Assembly (NCBI GenBank): GCA_902801515.1
Contig: CADCII010000004.1
Coordinates: 1 to 64,000, forward strand
Source of the DNA: an uncultured Lachnospiraceae bacterium
GTDB lineage: Bacteria > Bacillota > Clostridia > Lachnospirales > Lachnospiraceae
Reading direction: 5' to 3'
DNA length: 64,000 nt
The notes under the pieces were generated by a model. It saw only the letters and a program-made list of their open reading frames with translations. It was not told the origin of the DNA and ran no database searches. The translations under genes were made by a program, and so were the position numbers. This document shows, piece by piece, positions 38,182-60,315 of the stretch; position 1 is the stretch's first letter, and each line of letters starts with the position of its first letter.

Positions 38182-38904
38182 TTACAGGACCTTGGACAGG
38201 AAATCCTGCAGCCTCTGGTTCTTCGGATTATTGAAAAACTCATAGGGAGTATTCTCTTCGGCTACAATGCCTTCATCAATGAACAGGATACGGCTTCCAA
38301 CCTCCCTGGCAAATCCCATCTCATGGGTGACAACGACCATGGTCATACCGTCTTCTGCAAGTTCCTTCATGATCTCAAGTACTTCACCGACCATCTCAGG
38401 ATCCAGTGCGCTGGTCGGCTCATCAAAGAGCATCACATCGGGATCCATAGCAAGCGCCCTTGCGATCGCTATACGCTGCTGCTGTCCGCCGGAGAGCATC
38501 CCCGGGTAGGCGTCTGCCTTATCCGGAAGCCCGATGCGCTTCAGCAGATCCTCTGCCTTCGCATCCGCCTCCTCCTGGCTCATTTTCTTAAGCAGGACCG
38601 GAGCGAGTGTAATGTTCTGCCGGACCGTTTTCATCGGGAACAGATTGAACTGCTGGAATACCATGCCCATCCTCTGCCGGATCTTATTGATATCCGTCTT
38701 CGGATCGGTCAGGGTGACTCCCTCGAAGATAATCTCTCCGCCGGTAGGCTCTTCCAGCAGATTGAGGCAGCGCAGGAAGGTGGACTTGCCCGATCCGGAC
38801 GGACCAATGACAACGACCTTCTCACCTTTTTCGATATGCTGGTCGATCCCCCGGAGGACCTGCTGATGTCCAAAGCTTTTCTGAAGATTCTTTGTGATAA
38901 TCAT
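38182..38904 (-). CDS. Polar amino acid ABC transporter ATP-binding protein (GlnQ-like)
   Basis: A 240-residue ATPase with Walker [21 protein letters not shown] near 34-53, [15 protein letters not shown] (Q loop), [19 protein letters not shown] and Walker [31 protein letters not shown] is the H-loop segment typical of the GlnQ/HisP group. Its start overlaps the permease stop by four bases. Confidence 0.95.
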
Positions 38905-39608
38905 TTCCGGTCCCCCTTTCCCATCTTTCGCTCGAAGAAGCCCATCAGTGCTGACAGGCCGAGCGTCATGATAAGATAGATCGCGGCCGCGATCACATAC
39001 GGCGGGATGACGTCCCAGGTCCTGGATCCGACATAGCCTGCCATCTTCATCAGGTCATTGACAGCGATGACAGAGATGACGGAGGTTTCCTTGACCAGAA
39101 CGATGAATTCATTTCCGAGCGCAGGAAGGATATTCTTGATGGCCTGCGGCAGGATGATGGTCCGCATCGTCATAGAGTAGGTCAGTCCAAGAGAACGGCC
39201 GGCTTCCATCTGGCCGATCGGAATCGACTCGATGCCCGCACGGATGATCTCGGACACATAGGCGCCGGAGTTAATGCCGCAGCAGACCGCGCCGACCACG
39301 ATGGGATTCGTGTTTGGGGATGTGAAGATCAGATTGTAGATGATCATGATCTGCACGATCATGGGCGTGCCGCGGATAACCGTGATATAAACTTTTGCAA
39401 ACGCATTCAGGACGCTCAGGAGCGGATTGGACGAATGCTTCGAAGAGACCCTGATTATCGCAAGTATGATACCGATCGCGATACCGATGATCACTGCGAA
39501 GAGCGAGATCAGCAGTGTCATGCGCAGACCGCTCAGGTACGCAAGATAGCGCCGTTCGGGGACCCATGCGTTATAAAAACTCTGTCCGATTGATTTTAAT
39601 AATTCCAT
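38901..39608 (-). CDS. Polar amino acid ABC transporter permease
   Basis: A 235-residue membrane protein with about five membrane segments. [13 protein letters not shown] and the EAA loop [20 protein letters not shown] followed by [20 protein letters not shown] identify the HisM/GlnP family. It overlaps the ATPase gene and is separated from the receptor by a stable hairpin. Confidence 0.94.
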
Positions 39609-39700: not shown

Positions 39701-41050
39701 TTACTCAGCCTCGGTCTCAGCAGCCTCTGCCTCAGTCTCGGCAGCGCCTTCGGATGCGGTTGAATGAGAAGCAATGATCTCATCCATCTGTCCGCTCTCC
39801 TGCAGCTGAGTGATGACTGCGTCAACAGCTGCCTTCATCTGCTCGTTGTCCTTCTTGATGGCTACTGCGTAGGAATCCTCGAACAGAGCGTCGCCTGCAA
39901 GGATCTCAAGTCCGTCATTGGAAGCGACCAGCTCAAGCGCCGGAGCCTCATCCATAACGATGCAGTCGATCTTGCCGTTCAGAAGATCCTGTGCCGCCTG
40001 GACAAACTTGGTGTAGCGCTGTACAGACTTCGGAGAAGCGTTCTCGCTGACCCACAGGTCTGCGATGTTGCCCTGCTGAACACCGACAACCTTGCCTTCA
40101 AGTGCGTCCGCGGAAGATTCCTCAACCTTCGGATCTGCCTTGTTGACAAGGATGACATCCTTGGAATCCACATACTTGACGGAGAAGTCCATGACCTCTT
40201 CACGCTCTTCGCTGACAGAAACGCCAGCGGCGACGATATCGACCTTGCCCTGCTGTACTGCCAGGAGAGCTCCGTCGAAGTCCATGTTCTGAACTTCAAG
40301 TTCTACGCCGAGAGCATCTGCGATCGCCTGGGCGATATCCATGTCGATACCCTTGACCTCGTTGCCTACAAGATATTCATAAGGAGCAAATCCTGCCTCA
40401 GTTCCGACGATCAGCTTGCCGTCAGATACAGTGGTAACTGCGCTGAAGTCAACTTCCTCAGCTGCCTCTGCCTCAGTCATAACTTCTGCTGCTTCCTCTG
40501 CCTCAGTCATAACCTCTGCTGCTGCTTCCTCTGCCTCGGTCATAACCTCTGCTGCTGCTTCCTCTGCCTCGGTCATTGCGCTTACGATCGCTTCTTCAGC
40601 CTCGGTCATAAACTCTTCTGCTGCTTCTTCTGCTTCGGTCATCGCCGCTGTGAGTACTTCTTCTGCCTCGGTCATAAGTTCTGCAGCTGCTTCTGCTTCG
40701 GTCATCGCAGTTGTGACTGTTTCTTCTGCCTCGGTCATAAGTTCTGCCGCTGCTTCTTCTGCTTCAGTCATTGCGGCTGCAACAGTTCCTTCTGCCTCAG
40801 TAACTGCAGTCTCAACTGCAGCTGCAGCTTCCGTCTCGACAACCTGTGCTGCCTCTGTCTCGACAACCTGTGCAGCCTCTGTCTCAACAGCCTGCGCAGC
40901 TTCTGTCACTGTCTCTTCAACAACTGCCTGTGTCTCTGCGGTCGTTGCCTTCTCAGTGGCCTTTTCTGTCTCTTTCTTTCCGCCGCTGCATCCGGTAAGT
41001 ACCAGAGCTGTTACAGCAAGCAGAGCTGTGATCTTCCTGAATTTTTTCAT
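39701..41050 (-). CDS. Amino acid ABC transporter substrate-binding lipoprotein with long acidic repeat linker
   Basis: A 449-residue lipoprotein. The lipobox is LVLTGC (Cys21). Residues about 27-200 are a Thr/Glu/Ala-rich spacer. First come VETEAAQV-type repeats at eight-residue spacing (residues 55-75). Then ten MTEAE copies occur at residues 94, 105, 116, 126, 137, 148, 159, 170, 181 and 191. The binding domain (about 207-430) shows LIVGTEAGFAPYEYLVGN, KGIDMDIAQAIADAL, NMDFDGALLAVQQGKVDIVA and YAVAIKKDN. The end is again an ETEAEAAETEAE tail. The start MKKFRKI has AAGGAG seven bases upstream; the longer frame is rejected. Confidence 0.9.
   Translation of the reverse strand: MKKFRKITALLAVTALVLTGCSGGKKETEKATEKATTAETQAVVEETVTEAAQAVETEAAQVVETEAAQVVETEAAAAVETAVTEAEGTVAAAMTEAEEAAAELMTEAEETVTTAMTEAEAAAELMTEAEEVLTAAMTEAEEAAEEFMTEAEEAIVSAMTEAEEAAAEVMTEAEEAAAEVMTEAEEAAEVMTEAEAAEEVDFSAVTTVSDGKLIVGTEAGFAPYEYLVGNEVKGIDMDIAQAIADALGVELEVQNMDFDGALLAVQQGKVDIVAAGVSVSEEREEVMDFSVKYVDSKDVILVNKADPKVEESSADALEGKVVGVQQGNIADLWVSENASPKSVQRYTKFVQAAQDLLNGKIDCIVMDEAPALELVASNDGLEILAGDALFEDSYAVAIKKDNEQMKAAVDAVITQLQESGQMDEIIASHSTASEGAAETEAEAAETEAE
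40451..40950 (-). repeat. Coding repeat array for T/E/A-rich linker
   Basis: Imperfect tandem repeats within the receptor gene, mostly of 33 bases (11 codons) with two 30-base units, encoding MTEAEEA plus variable residues. A shorter 24-base family (VETEAAQV) lies at the 5' end. They produce shadow reading frames rich in Ser/Ala on the other strand, which are not genes. Confidence 0.9.
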
Positions 41051-41109
41051 AATCCGACTCCTTCTCACTTTGTAATACTTTCAAGTTGCAAAGTTACAGT
41101 TCTCAAGCA

Positions 41110-41138
41110 TTATATGGCAATCTCACACAGAACACAAG
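41110..41138 (-). promoter_or_regulatory. Sigma-A promoter of the amino acid ABC operon
   Basis: Minus-strand TTGTGT (41138-41133), 17 bases, TATAAT (41115-41110), 60 bases before the receptor ATG. Confidence 0.76.
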
Positions 41139-41147
41139 CATAAATAA

Positions 41148-41215: not shown

Positions 41216-42580
41216 TTAGTTTTTAAACGAATGGATCGGAGCGGGGATCCTTCCCTGCCTCCTGATAAAGTCTTCGCAGGAGAATCTGTTCACCGGCATG
41301 ATCGGCGCATGTCCGAGCAGCCCTCCGAATTCAACACTCTCGCCCACGCCCTTGCCGATCACGGGGATCAGTCTGACAGCAGTCGTTTTCTGATTGACCA
41401 TGCCGATCGCCATCTCATCGGCGATAATGCCGGATATTGATGATGCTTTCGTGTCACCCGGTATGGCGATCATATCCAGGCCCACCGAGCAAACACAGGT
41501 CATTGCCTCCAGCTTCTCGAGATGAAGCGCCCCTGCCTCCACAGCGTCGATCATACCCTGGTCTTCCGACACGGGAATGAAAGCGCCGGACAGTCCGCCC
41601 ACATAGCTGGACGCCATGACGCCGCCTTTCTTGACCTGGTCATTGAGCAGAGCGAGCGCTGCTGTCGTTCCCGGAGCACCTGCATATTCCAGTCCGATCT
41701 CGCAGAGAATATCCGCAACCGAGTCACCGATCGCCGGAGTCGGAGCCAGAGACAGGTCTATGATGCCGAACGGTACGCCCAGTCTTCTGGATGCTTCCTG
41801 CGCGACCAGCTGGCCGACACGGGTAACCTTAAACGCAGTCTTCTTGATGGTCTCGCAGAGAACTTCGAAATTCTCTCCTCTTACCGATTCCAATGCGGTC
41901 TTTACAACGCCGGGACCGGATACGCCGACATTGATCACCGTATCTCCCTCGGTCACGCCGTGAAATGCCCCTGCCATGAACGGATTGTCATCCGGAGCAT
42001 TGCAGAATACCACGAGTTTCGCACATCCCAGAGAATCCTGTTCTTTTGTCAGCCTGGCCGTCTCAAGTATGATCTCGCCGAGCAGACGGATCGCATCCAT
42101 ATCGATTCCCGTCTTCGTGGATCCGACGTTGACTGATGAACAGACAAAATCCGTGGACGCAAGTGCCCTGGGGATGGCACGGATCAGGTTCTCCTCTGCA
42201 GGAGTCATTCCTTTCGATACCACAGCGGAGAAACCGCCCAGGAAATTGACACCGACTTCCTTTGCGGCTCTGTCAAGTGTCTGTGCGATACTGACGAAAT
42301 CCTCCGGCGTCCTGCATGCAGAGGCGCCGACCAGTCCGATGGGCGTAACAGAGATCCTTTTGTTGACAACAGGAATCCCGTACTCCCTCTCGATCTCATT
42401 TCCGACCTTAACCAGATCTTTCGCGCAGGTCGTGATCTTTGAATAGATATTTTCATTTAGCTGAGCCAGATCCGAGGTAATACAGTCAAGAAGGCTGATG
42501 CCCATGGTGATCGTACGGACGTCCAGATTCTCCTGGGTGATCATCTTGACTGTCTCGGTTGCTTCCAGAATATTAATCAT
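41216..42580 (-). CDS. UPF0210 / PFL family protein
   Basis: A 454-residue member of the UPF0210 (PFL-like) family, whose fold is related to glycyl-radical enzymes but whose function is unknown. Seen in the text are [68 protein letters not shown] and a C-terminal [19 protein letters not shown]. There is no clear glycyl radical motif. It follows the UPF0237 ACT gene by 30 bases; this pair is widely conserved in Firmicutes, which suggests the small protein senses a ligand for the large one. Confidence 0.92.
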
Positions 42581-52272: not shown

Positions 52273-53085
52273 TTATTTCATATTCACAGACAGTTTCTTC
52301 TGCTCTTCTTCATCTGTCTCATCTGAATGCGATTCTATCCGGATCTTCGCAGGAGCAGTTTCTTCATGATCGTTCTCTGCAATGAGCTTGTCACAGGAGA
52401 TTCTGTCATCGGACTCCATCGGAACCTCTGCCAGAAGCCTGTGCAGTTCATAGTGCGGATTGTATTTGTCATGGGGATAGTCATATTTGCCGACTTCGAC
52501 AGAATCCGGCATGCCTTCCACGTAAGGGACATACTTTCGTCCGTTCGGAAAGGCCAGTTTATTCCACTCATAAGCTCCGACTGCGGTAGCGTGGGCCACA
52601 ATCCCTTCATAATACCCCGCTGTCCCTGTCATATATCCGCTGGCAATGACAGCGCTGTACATGGCTTCCGGAGTGGAATTCAGATTGCGTATCACCGAAG
52701 CGACTCCAGGATAATTCCCCTGCCAGAACCAGATCAGGAATGCATGAAGGCCGTCCGAGAAGGTCGGAAATGAAGCGAACCCCCCATACACACTTCCGCA
52801 GGGAACGATTGCCGCGATCGTCGGGGAATAAGATATTCCCCAGTAGTTATTGTATACGGCGGCAAGGGCGGAAACTGAATTATATCCGGACTCTACACCT
52901 GCCATGCCGACAACAGTCGAAGGCCATATACCATATTCCCTGCACTGGGTTATGATCTCGTCCTTGTGCGATTCCATGATACTCTTCAAGTCAGCGGCAT
53001 GTGCAGTGCCTGCCAGTGAAGCCCCGATGATCATCGTGAGGACAAACACACGTATCTTTTTACCAAATGAACTCATAGGCCGCAT
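52273..53085 (-). CDS. Exported glucosaminidase-domain protein (putative peptidoglycan hydrolase)
   Basis: A 270-residue protein with a signal peptide (about 1-30, ending GTAHAAD). The lysozyme-like glucosaminidase domain (about 35-180) shows YGIWPSTVVGMAGVESGYNS, where the Glu in VESG is the likely catalytic acid, then NNYWGI, YGGFASFPTFSDGLHAFLIW and ATAVGAYEWNKL. A charged tail (about 195-270) follows. The start overlaps the upstream stop as TAATG; M4 (53076) is an equally possible start. It likely cleaves glycan strands together with the peptidoglycan-binding partner upstream. Confidence 0.82.
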   Translation of the reverse strand: MRPMSSFGKKIRVFVLTMIIGASLAGTAHAADLKSIMESHKDEIITQCREYGIWPSTVVGMAGVESGYNSVSALAAVYNNYWGISYSPTIAAIVPCGSVYGGFASFPTFSDGLHAFLIWFWQGNYPGVASVIRNLNSTPEAMYSAVIASGYMTGTAGYYEGIVAHATAVGAYEWNKLAFPNGRKYVPYVEGMPDSVEVGKYDYPHDKYNPHYELHRLLAEVPMESDDRISCDKLIAENDHEETAPAKIRIESHSDETDEEEQKKLSVNMK

Positions 53086-54245
53086 TACTCCGCGTTCTCA
53101 CCACTCTGCGTCTCCTCCTGCGGGGGCGCTGCTTTGTCCGCTTCTTCCTGAAGCTGTGCGACGACTTCGTCATCGATAACTCCGTCCGCCGGCTCATATC
53201 CGTACAGCTTCTGGAAACGTTTTACCATGATGATCGTTCTCTCTCCGCAGTATCCGTCAACTTCTCCGACAGGAAGCTGCAGCTTATTCAGGCAGTCCTG
53301 GACCTTCTTCGTGGTCTCTTCAGATACCTCACCGTTCTTCAGATCATCCAGAGAGTCCAGTTCTTCAGCCTTCTCCAGCATGTCAGAAACATCGGCGAAC
53401 GCGATATCATAGTATTGCTTCAATTCGGCGACGGTGACAGCTCTCTTGGCATATCCGGCATCCCACAGTTCATTGTAGGCGTCAATATCCTGCTTTTCTT
53501 TCCAGGAGACATATGCATCGTACTGATTCTGCAGGCCGTTCAGATACTGTTCGCAGAGATACTGCAGATTGAGGTTGTCGACCCGGGCGTTTTTGTATCT
53601 GTCCATGAACCACCGCTCTGATTCGCAGCACTTATTGTTTGCTTCCGCGATCTCATCATTGGTCATCATGCTCAGTTCCGCTTCTGTGTAGGAGCCGGAA
53701 AGCGCAATACGGTCATTGACTGAAGCGCCGATATCTCCCAGGAAATCTTCCGCCGGAATCACCATGACACCCTCTGTCTTAGCTTCTGTCTGGGCTGTTT
53801 CAGGCTCGACCGCCTCTGTCTCAGCTTCTGTCTGGACTGTTTCCGGCTCAGCTGCCTCTGTCTGAACCGCTTCAGTCTCGATCTCTTCCGGTTCAGTCTC
53901 GATCACTTCCGGCTCAGTCTCGATCACTTCCGGCTCAGTCTCAATCACTTCCGGCTCAGTCTCGATCTCTTCCAGTTCAGTCTCAATCGCTTCCGGCTCA
54001 GTCTCAATCACTTCCGGCTCAGTCTCAATCACTTCCGGCTCAGTCTCAATCACTTCCGGCTCAGTCTCGAGAGCTTCCGACTCAGCCTCGAGAGCTTCCG
54101 ACTCAGACTCGAGAGTTTCTGTTTTAACCGCCTCTGTCTGTACGGTTTTATTCTGTGTCTCATATTTACCGCAGGATGTACAGCCTGCCGTCAGTACTAC
54201 TAAGAGCATGATCACAGTCGTACTTCTCCAGTTTGCTTTAATCAT
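53085..54245 (-). CDS. Lipoprotein with heptad EVIETEP repeats and C-terminal peptidoglycan-binding domain
   Basis: A 386-residue lipoprotein with lipobox VLTAGC (Cys22). Residues about 46-125 are tandem seven-residue units of the EVIETEP type. They are followed by a looser T/E/A/V spacer to about 160 (EAVQTEAAEPETVQTEA). Residues 165-305 form a helical, uncharacterised domain (SYTEAELSMMTNDEIAEAN, RWFMDRYKNARVDNLNLQYL). Residues about 308-366 match the PG-binding-1 fold (VQDCLNKLQLPVGEVDGYCG, then MVKRFQKLYGYEPADGVID). AAGGAG lies seven bases upstream. It is probably a membrane-anchored arm that reaches into the wall and works with the glucosaminidase it overlaps. Confidence 0.85.
   Translation of the reverse strand: MIKANWRSTTVIMLLVVLTAGCTSCGKYETQNKTVQTEAVKTETLESESEALEAESEALETEPEVIETEPEVIETEPEVIETEPEAIETELEEIETEPEVIETEPEVIETEPEVIETEPEEIETEAVQTEAAEPETVQTEAETEAVEPETAQTEAKTEGVMVIPAEDFLGDIGASVNDRIALSGSYTEAELSMMTNDEIAEANNKCCESERWFMDRYKNARVDNLNLQYLCEQYLNGLQNQYDAYVSWKEKQDIDAYNELWDAGYAKRAVTVAELKQYYDIAFADVSDMLEKAEELDSLDDLKNGEVSEETTKKVQDCLNKLQLPVGEVDGYCGERTIIMVKRFQKLYGYEPADGVIDDEVVAQLQEEADKAAPPQEETQSGENAE
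53871..54110 (-). repeat. 21-base coding tandem repeats (EVIETEP units)
   Basis: About eleven near-identical 21-base units inside the lipoprotein gene, each giving seven residues. Several neighbouring units are identical at the DNA level, which suggests recent expansion or contraction by slippage or recombination. Confidence 0.9.
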
Positions 54246-59040: not shown

Positions 59041-60315
59041 TCAGTTTGATTTCACTTTGTCCCAGTACTTCGCGTACAGTGCGTCTCCGTCCTCGCCGAT
59101 GTAGGTGTATACCTGGCTGTTCTCCAGCATCTTGGCTGTCGGGAACGCGACTGTGGAATTCTTGATGTCCTCATCCTCGATGAGTTCTCGCGCTTCCTTG
59201 TTGGGCGTTGAGTAGGTGATATAATCGAAGTTCTTCATCGCAATATCGCCTCTGCACAGGAAGTCAAGGAACTTCTCCGCGTTTTCAACATTCTGCGCAT
59301 CTTTCGGAATGACCCAGCTGTCGATCCACACATTGGATCCTTCTTTCGGGATCACGTATTCCAGGTCCTCATTCTCACGGGCGGTGTAGATCGCTTCTCC
59401 GGAATAGATGACGCCGAGGGCTGCCTCTCCGCCTATCATCTTGTCGCGGACCTGGTCGATCACGTATGCCTGTACGAGCGGCTTCTGTTCGATCAGCTTG
59501 TCGGCGCACGCCTTAAGTTCTTCCTCGTCGACCGTATTGATGTCATAGCCGAGAAGTTTCTCCGCCACCATGAAGGCATCGCGGACAGAATCCTGCATCA
59601 GGATATTATCCTTGTATTTTTCATCCCACAGGATCTCCCAGGAATCGACAGTGTCGCCCTCTTCGATCATGCTGGTGTTGTAGAGGATGCCGACCGTGCC
59701 CCAGCAGTAAGGGATCGAATATTTATTTTCCGGATCAAATCCCTTCGACTGCTCGATGTAGGTTTCATCGATGTTTTTGTAGTTCGGGATATGGTCAAAG
59801 TTGATCGGCTGAAGCATGTCATTCGCGATCATCTTGGCGATCATATAGTCAGACGGACAGATCAGATCGTAGGATGCTGCTCCGGCGGCAACCTTCGGAT
59901 ACATGATCTCGTTGGTCTCGAACTCTTCATAGACCACTTCGATACCTGTCTCTTCCTCAAACTGGTCAAGCACGTCCGGATCGATATACTCACCCCAGTT
60001 ATAGACGACGACCTTGCCGCTTCCTTTTGCGCTCTTTCCGGCCTCTGCTGCTTCTGCTTCGGTCTGTGTTGCCGGCTCCGCTTCGGTCTGCGCCGTCATC
60101 TCTGCCTCTGTCCCTGCTGCCTGCACTTCAGTCTGCGCTGCCGCAGTTTCCGCTGCCTGGCCTTCTGTCTGTTCAGTTTTCTCTGACTGTGCAGCGGCTG
60201 TCTGCTCAGTGGTTTCCTTTGTGGTCTCCTTCGCCGTATCAACTTTCTTGATGCAGCCCGTAAGAAGGCACGGGATCAGTACAGCGACCATGACAGATGC
60301 AATGACTTTTTTCAT
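59041..60315 (-). CDS. potD: Spermidine/putrescine-binding lipoprotein PotD with acidic linker
   Basis: A 424-residue lipoprotein with lipobox CLLTGC (Cys21). Residues about 27-97 are a T/E/A/Q-rich spacer (TTKETTEQTAAAQSEKTEQT, later TAQTEAEPATQTEAEAAEAG). The binding domain begins VVVYNWGEYIDPDVLDQFEE and continues with GIEVVYEEFETNEIMYPKV, YDLICPSDYMIAKMI and YCWGTVGILYN. It delivers polyamines to PotBC. It is the last gene of the five-gene operon. Confidence 0.94.
   Translation of the reverse strand: MKKVIASVMVAVLIPCLLTGCIKKVDTAKETTKETTEQTAAAQSEKTEQTEGQAAETAAAQTEVQAAGTEAEMTAQTEAEPATQTEAEAAEAGKSAKGSGKVVVYNWGEYIDPDVLDQFEEETGIEVVYEEFETNEIMYPKVAAGAASYDLICPSDYMIAKMIANDMLQPINFDHIPNYKNIDETYIEQSKGFDPENKYSIPYCWGTVGILYNTSMIEEGDTVDSWEILWDEKYKDNILMQDSVRDAFMVAEKLLGYDINTVDEEELKACADKLIEQKPLVQAYVIDQVRDKMIGGEAALGVIYSGEAIYTARENEDLEYVIPKEGSNVWIDSWVIPKDAQNVENAEKFLDFLCRGDIAMKNFDYITYSTPNKEARELIEDEDIKNSTVAFPTAKMLENSQVYTYIGEDGDALYAKYWDKVKSN

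What the first reader, a model, noticed from the sequence alone, without database searches (positions are those of the whole stretch)
39701..41050. Eleven-residue (hendecad) acidic repeat inside an amino acid receptor lipoprotein
Between the lipidated Cys21 and the binding domain lie about 175 residues of Thr/Glu/Ala. MTEAE recurs ten times at residues 94, 105, 116, 126, 137, 148, 159, 170, 181 and 191, so the step is 11 with two steps of 10. An 11-residue period is three helical turns and is typical of straight or right-handed coiled coils and of amphipathic membrane-lying helices. The composition is Met/Ala on one side and Glu on the other. Ordinary receptors of this family are about 260 residues. 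A long acidic rod could lift the receptor through the wall, oligomerise, or bind cations.
Basis: partly seen in the sequence, partly recalled or inferred. Interest (0 to 1): 0.72.

Follow-up and report, generated by a model that had tools for sequence, protein, structure and literature searches.

The report
Changeable acidic stalk on membrane-anchored receptor
A bacterium, probably of the gut or rumen, holds a nutrient receptor on its membrane by an unusually long, acidic, repetitive stalk; the eleven-residue repeat is real, but the nearest relative has a ten-residue one, so the spacer as such probably matters more than the exact period.

Summary
Three of 17 orthologues from other species of the genus also have a lipobox and a long acidic linker: the nearest (94% identical in the domain) repeats every 10 residues without a helical stripe, a second keeps 11, the third mixes 11 and 13. 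The other 14 have no long linker. Unrelated lipoproteins of the genus bear the same kind of stalk with steps of 7, 7+5, 7+8, 10 or 11. AlphaFold2 draws a 137-residue helix; a helix-coil estimate with recalled parameters gives about 1% helix for the monomer. Best reading: a recombining acidic tether between lipid anchor and cargo, selected for length and composition (few helix breakers, few Lys/Arg), the period being largely a by-product of repeat turnover. A dedicated hendecad rod is possible but not favoured. New variant of a known kind; moderately interesting.

The parts
39701..41050 (-). Gene of the stalked receptor lipoprotein (449 aa plus stop)
   Evidence: ORF and translation; Shine-Dalgarno-like AGAAGGAG at 41058-41065 by eye
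40988..41050 (-). Signal peptide residues 1-20 and lipidation Cys21 (lipobox VLTGC)
   Evidence: Read from sequence; lipobox rule recalled; Lgt and LspA genes present in the genome
40439..40987 (-). Acidic linker/stalk, residues 22-204, net charge -50
40802..40909 (-). Short-step part of the stalk (TEA at 49, 57, 65, 73; step 8), about residues 48-83
   Evidence: tandem repeat 40823-40907, period 24
40451..40771 (-). Hendecad array, ten MTEAE units, residues 94-200
40511..40921 (-). Predicted continuous helix, residues 44-180
   Evidence: AlphaFold2, pLDDT 82-86 over residues 71-160, lower towards both ends
39770..40414 (-). SBP_bac_3 amino-acid-binding domain, residues 213-427
   Evidence: Pfam PF00497 E 7e-34; solved relatives
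39704..39760 (-). Acidic C-terminal tail TASEGAAETEAEAAETEAE, residues 431-449
   Evidence: TRF 39704-39745
38901..39608 (-). Permease of the same importer
   Evidence: PF00528; synteny
38182..38904 (-). ATPase of the same importer (GlnQ-like)
   Evidence: PF00005; NCBIfam GlnQ best but under its cut-off; synteny
41216..42580 (-). DUF711 gene, upstream neighbour conserved in the genus
   Evidence: PF05167; synteny

Best explanation
The segment is a long acidic tether between the lipid anchor and an ordinary type-3 substrate-binding domain of an amino-acid ABC importer. Shown: it belongs to a kind of stalk that several unrelated lipoproteins of this genus carry, built mostly of Glu, Ala, Thr and Val (plus Met here), with few Lys/Arg, aromatic or helix-breaking residues; its repeat period differs between orthologues and between cargos, while signal peptide, domain and gene neighbourhood stay. 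Inferred: tandem duplication and recombination keep changing the array; selection keeps charge, solubility, lack of protease sites and reach. The stalk lets the receptor roam through the wall zone around its lipid anchor and still swing back to the permease, helped by weakly predicted, probably flexible stretches at both ends (about residues 18-50 and 179-196). It may become helical conditionally.
For: Same locus: the order ACT-DUF711-SBP-permease-ATPase is seen in long- and short-linker genus members as far as the fetched DNA reaches. Of 18 genus orthologues (own one included), 4 have the VLTGC lipobox plus a 117-183 aa acidic linker; 14 have no long linker and mostly SPI-like signals. Period 11 in G000, 10 in G018, 11 in G006, 11/13 in G009, with similar composition. 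G000 and G018 share both ends of the linker while the middle differs. Same stalk style on an SBP_bac_5 receptor, a FKBP/Trigger_C foldase and a weakly OB-like lipoprotein of the genus and, in this window, on a PG_binding_1 lipoprotein and an SBP_bac_8/SBP_bac_1 receptor. Pro/Gly/Ser/Asn/Asp make up 1-9% of the four long linkers against 40% in the 57 (of 62) out-of-genus orthologues with a recognised lipobox. One exact unit duplication.
Against: No functional data. The 57 lipidated orthologues outside the genus manage with linkers of 1-50 residues (median 22), and the SPI-form orthologues with none, so a need for long reach is not shown. The stripe at 100 degrees in two of the four orthologues, and in four further arrays that hold 11-steps, is more than shuffled residues give and hints that helical phase matters. 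Steps of 11 and 7, both near whole helical turns, are the commonest modal steps. Pure repeat drift without function is not excluded.
Confidence: 0.62

Rival explanations
1. One reading: a dedicated hendecad helix, a rigid or self-associating rod of about 20 nm (137 residues x 0.15 nm) that lifts the receptor and oligomerises through a Met/Ala/Val stripe.
For: AlphaFold2 helix 44-180, pLDDT 82-86 over residues 71-160; 100-degree stripe in G000 and G006 and in the arrays of L171, L179, L180 and L185 (reached by 0 of 500 shuffles each). By arithmetic the two 10-steps pull back the drift of pure 11-steps, so the stripe stays within about 100 degrees on a 3.6-residue helix.
Against: Period 10 without stripe in the nearest orthologue; only 6 of 23 arrays examined show the stripe, and three with several 11-steps (L170, L181, L182) do not; column-permutation test 7-11%; helix-coil estimate about 1% with recalled parameters; 37 Glu and no Lys/Arg in residues 94-203, so no salt bridges; a stiff upright 20 nm rod would keep the receptor from its permease (inference).
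Confidence: 0.2
2. Repeat drift: slippage and recombination in a region under weak constraint; any soluble acidic filler will do and the stalk has no selected role beyond not harming.
For: Change of period and length among species at 84-94% domain identity; orthologues without any stalk; exact unit duplication.
Against: Narrow composition: Pro/Gly/Ser/Asn/Asp at most 10% in 16 of 21 genus arrays and 1-9% in the four receptor linkers; recurrence on unrelated lipoproteins; within the genus the canonical lipobox and the long stalk go together (4 with both, 14 with neither clearly), though outside the genus lipobox goes with short linkers.
Confidence: 0.14
3. Cation- or pH-responsive element: a coil at neutral pH that turns helical when Glu is protonated or bound by Ca/Mg in an acid rumen or gut niche.
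For: Net charge -50; a helix predicted with fair confidence where the monomer estimate is coil.
Against: No specific cation motif recognised; not tested; the same estimate with a guessed higher Glu propensity for low pH still gives only 1-3%.
Confidence: 0.04

Closest known systems
Amino-acid ABC importer substrate-binding lipoproteins, SBP_bac_3 (PF00497), e.g. GlnH/ArtJ type
   Same: Domain, lipobox, operon with permease and GlnQ-like ATPase
   Different: Linker 183 aa instead of a median of 22 (max 50) in 57 of 62 out-of-genus orthologues
Periscope proteins (PMC8201768, passages read)
   Same: Tandem-repeat stalk of variable length holding a functional domain off the cell surface
   Different: Those arrays are highly similar folded domains and vary in repeat number between strains; here the units are 7-11 residues, the anchor is a lipid, and within-species variation was not testable
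TolA domain II, periplasm-spanning segment, mostly helical in E. coli and related species (PMC12204202, passages read)
   Same: Long spacer of varying length, helical in part of its family
   Different: Transmembrane anchor, Gram-negative envelope, force-transducing role; homology not tested
GlnPQ, with 19- and 14-residue flexible linkers between transporter and receptor domains (PMC8025302, passages read)
   Same: Linkers that tether amino-acid receptor domains near the permease
   Different: About tenfold shorter and covalently joined to the permease
LEA group 3, apolipoprotein and alpha-synuclein 11-mers (recalled, not searched)
   Same: 11-residue step, conditional helicity
   Different: Those contain basic residues; here no basic residue lies in the array and the period is not conserved

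Membership tests
SBP_bac_3 lipoprotein of an amino-acid importer | SBP_bac_3 domain | tested here: met
   PF00497 E 7e-34, residues 213-427
SBP_bac_3 lipoprotein of an amino-acid importer | Linked permease and ATPase genes | tested here: met
SBP_bac_3 lipoprotein of an amino-acid importer | Lipobox Cys and the Lgt/LspA machinery | tested here: met
   VLTGC21; Lgt in 18 of 19 genus genomes and LspA in 16 of 19, both in G000; lipidation itself not shown
Hendecad coiled coil | Regular 11-residue period with an alpha-helical hydrophobic stripe | tested here: inconclusive
   Period met; stripe above residue shuffles, but 7-8% on column permutation
Hendecad coiled coil | Period conserved in orthologues | tested here: not met
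   G018 has 10; G006 11; G009 11/13; 14 genus orthologues have no array
Hendecad coiled coil | Oligomer formation | not testable with these tools
   Only single chains could be predicted
Periscope protein | Tandem folded domains forming the rod | tested here: not met
   Units are 7-11 residues; no Pfam domain in the array; the model shows a helix, no folded domains there
Periscope protein | Repeat number varies between strains of a species | not testable with these tools
   One genome per species held; variation between species seen

The most novel reading that the evidence does not exclude
This genus uses an interchangeable acidic stalk module for lipoproteins: one signal-peptide-plus-stalk design placed before unrelated cargos (amino-acid and peptide receptors, a surface foldase, a wall-binding protein), whose repeat step is drawn mainly from helix-compatible lengths (7, 11) and which folds into an all-acidic helix only under local conditions, giving adjustable reach without a fixed sequence.
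Probability: 0.15. Interest if true: 0.62.

Novelty: new variant of a known kind. Interest (0 to 1): 0.42.

Why it matters
The lipid-anchored orthologues outside the genus sit on short linkers (1-50 residues). Here is a lineage in which E/A/T-rich linkers of roughly 80-350 residues stand on several unrelated lipoproteins, while orthologous receptors in sister species lack the long linker and, it seems, the lipid anchor. That gives natural linker swaps at one locus for testing how far from the membrane a receptor may sit and still feed its permease, and whether an all-acidic repeat can act as a rod.

Tried and rejected
Assembly artefact: rejected; the units differ in codons (of the 11-residue units only 7 and 8 are identical) and three other species carry comparable arrays. 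Antisense gene (a 459-aa ORF on the + strand): judged a by-product of codon use; of six relatives checked, an antisense frame is open over the whole gene in L032 and L035 but not in L033, L034, L045 or L053. Search of the own genome with the hendecad segment found only itself at E <= 1, though one search shows a related array in G000 (L178). Literature: hendecad + lipoprotein + substrate-binding protein, and a six-word lipoprotein linker/tether search, gave 0 papers each. Of the papers listed (10 of 71; 12 of 34; 8 of 26; 8 of 10), none by title or shown start of the abstract describes such stalks on lipoproteins; these are listings, and passages were read only of PMC8201768, PMC8025302 and PMC12204202. 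One search served to look up the genus name. The C-terminal acidic tail as a genome-wide tag: only 4 of 384 mechanical ORFs of the sample have it, so not general.

Full report
OBSERVATION. The gene lies at 39701-41050 on the minus strand and codes for 449 residues. Residues 1-20 are a signal peptide, Cys21 ends the lipobox VLTGC (rule recalled), residues 22-204 are the acidic linker, 213-427 the SBP_bac_3 domain (E 7e-34), and the end is TASEGAAETEAEAAETEAE. Best NCBIfam matches are cystine, Lys/Arg/Orn and glutamine receptors, all far below the curated cut-offs, so the substrate stays open; the best solved relatives are amino-acid receptors. MTEAE occurs ten times at exactly the residues given. 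The linker has net charge -50 and four Lys, all in its first 13 residues. Before the hendecads a part with step 8 runs from residue 49 to 73. TRF finds the array at 40467-40798 with periods 33, 66 and 129. The 33-base units differ synonymously as well as in sequence, except units 7 and 8, which are identical.

RELATIVES. The domain was sought in 61 genomes: 33 had a match at E <= 1e-30, among them the own genome and 17 of 18 other species of the genus. One genus member appears to be Porcincola intestinalis (L045 has the contig length of G004:C30); the others are mostly uncultured Lachnospiraceae or Clostridia, several from rumen. Of the 18 genus orthologues, G000, G018, G006 and G009 have the lipobox and linkers of 183, 161, 117 and 162 residues. 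The remaining 14 lack a long linker and mostly start with an SPI-like signal, AxA followed by an acidic start; I sorted these by eye, and several have an AAC- or AGC-like motif inside or near the hydrophobic stretch whose use I cannot judge. Gene order ACT-DUF711-SBP-permease-ATPase is the same in long and short genus forms as far as the fetched DNA reaches, so this is one locus whose N-terminus changed. A tree of 80 domains (18 genus, 62 outside; the receptor-permease fusion L103 dropped) puts the four long forms close together inside the genus; one origin is possible but not shown: 2 changes by parsimony, 10% of bootstrap trees with one.

IS THE PERIOD KEPT? TEA-type steps are 11 (two of 10) in G000; 10, then 9 and 7, in G018; 11 in G006 (with a 22-residue alternation); 8 to 13, later 11 and 13 by turns, in G009. 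G018 is the nearest relative (94% in the domain). It shares the linker's beginning and its end with G000, and the middle is different. So the period is not kept in the closest case, kept in one and blurred in one. Composition and rough length are kept.

IS IT A HELIX? AlphaFold2 with 36 sequences gives a helix 44-180 at pLDDT 82-86 over residues 71-160, lower at its ends, and values under 50 at 18-50 and 179-196. For G018 it draws a helix 27-139 whose pLDDT falls from 79 to 50, and values under 50 at most of 136-176. Such models are known to favour helix in low-complexity sequence (recalled), and no shuffled control could be run. The hydrophobic moment of the G000 hendecads peaks at about 100 degrees (0.953; 0 of 2000 residue shuffles reach it), but permuting columns inside the unit reaches it in 7-8%; G006 gives 9-11%; G018 has none (58-59% of column permutations and 99% of shuffles reach its value). 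Taken over the whole linker rather than the array, the G000 peak stays within the shuffle range when all angles from 60 to 180 degrees are allowed (0.57 against a 99% limit of 0.64). A Lifson-Roig estimate with parameters from memory gives about 1% helicity for all four linkers against 50% for an alanine-lysine control. I take the monomer as undecided, perhaps conditionally helical.

A GENUS HABIT. In 464 kb of G000 (20 stretches plus window) 7 of 1978 mechanical ORFs carry E/T/A-rich stretches by my filter; the receptor scores highest, and two others lie in this window: the lipoprotein at 53085-54245 with step 7 and a PG_binding_1 domain, and the SBP_bac_8/SBP_bac_1 receptor at 59041-60315. 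Searches with N-terminal queries and reading of the loci show the same stalk style on an SBP_bac_5 receptor (G011, step 11), a lipoprotein with a weak, sub-threshold OB match (G008 step 7, G007 7+5, G018 11, G006 11 then 7+8, G011 7 then 11) and a FKBP/Trigger_C foldase (G018 11, G009 10) (the G008 and G007 forms are assigned by their shared C-terminus). Of 23 arrays (21 genus, 2 outside; 19 further rows dropped as under 60 residues or holding X; a few of the 23, such as L202, L204, L211 and L227, are not true E/A arrays), 6 have a helical stripe beyond residue shuffles (p 0.004 or less), all of them with 11-steps; 17 have none, among them L170, L181 and L182, which also hold 11-steps. Outside the genus 9 of 148 genomes matched the query; of their loci read, linkers are under 55 residues except one of 89 with step 5 (L221) and a doubtful one of 83 (L227), and L220 was not caught by my filter. 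That query can only find similar N-termini. Out-of-genus orthologues of the receptor have linkers of 1-50 residues, 40% Pro/Gly/Ser/Asn/Asp, in 57 of 62 with a recognised lipobox (5 dropped for none); the four long linkers have 1-9%.

MECHANISM. Shown: position, composition, changing period, same stalk style on other cargos, lipoprotein genes Lgt and LspA in the genome. Inferred: a tether that spans the wall zone. A straight helix of 137 residues would be about 20 nm (0.15 nm per residue, established geometry), but the receptor has to dock on its permease in the membrane, so an upright stiff rod makes little sense; a flexible or hinged tether does. Lack of Lys/Arg in residues 35-211 would also spare it trypsin-like cleavage (inference). 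Against any need for reach: lipidated orthologues outside the genus do with a median of 22 residues.

KNOWN. It works like a short-unit, lipid-anchored cousin of periscope stalks (PMC8201768, passages) or of the long TolA spacer (PMC12204202, passages), but is a member of neither. In GlnPQ, receptor domains of this class are tethered by 19 and 14 residues (PMC8025302, passages).

VERDICT. Observation confirmed; a functional hendecad is not established; the broader finding, a turnover-prone acidic stalk used by several lipoproteins of one genus, is a new variant of a known kind.

Noticed in passing
G000 loci L132-L166: Of 35 solute-binding-protein loci printed (of 43 matches), 28 had a readable N-terminus; sorted by eye, 21 look like ordinary SPI-secreted proteins without lipobox, 4 like lipoproteins (L132, L145, L160, L162), 1 is membrane-anchored (L147) and 2 are unclear (L143, L155). 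Odd for a monoderm.
   Followed up: partly
C-termini of L132-L136, L138, L166: All five SBP_bac_3 receptors and two others of the 35 loci end in an acidic ETEAE- or ETETE-like tail; 15 of 18 genus orthologues of this receptor have an acidic E/T/A tail too. Only 4 of 384 sampled ORFs have such an end.
   Followed up: partly
53085-54245 (-): Lipoprotein with about eleven ETEPEVI-type heptads and a C-terminal PG_binding_1 domain.
   Followed up: partly
59041-60315 (-): Solute-binding lipoprotein (SBP_bac_8/SBP_bac_1) with a roughly 75-residue T/E/A/Q linker.
   Followed up: partly
L182, L187 (G018, G009): Lipid-anchored trigger-factor-like foldase (FKBP_C plus Trigger_C) with an acidic repeat stalk, followed by a stretch rich in Trp/Tyr/Glu/Asp.
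   Followed up: no
L103: [Clostridium] polysaccharolyticum has the receptor fused to its permease in one ORF of 495 aa.
   Followed up: no
39764-41143 (+): A 459-aa antisense ORF overlaps most of the gene; an antisense frame is also open over the whole gene in L032 and L035; probably a codon-use by-product.
   Followed up: partly
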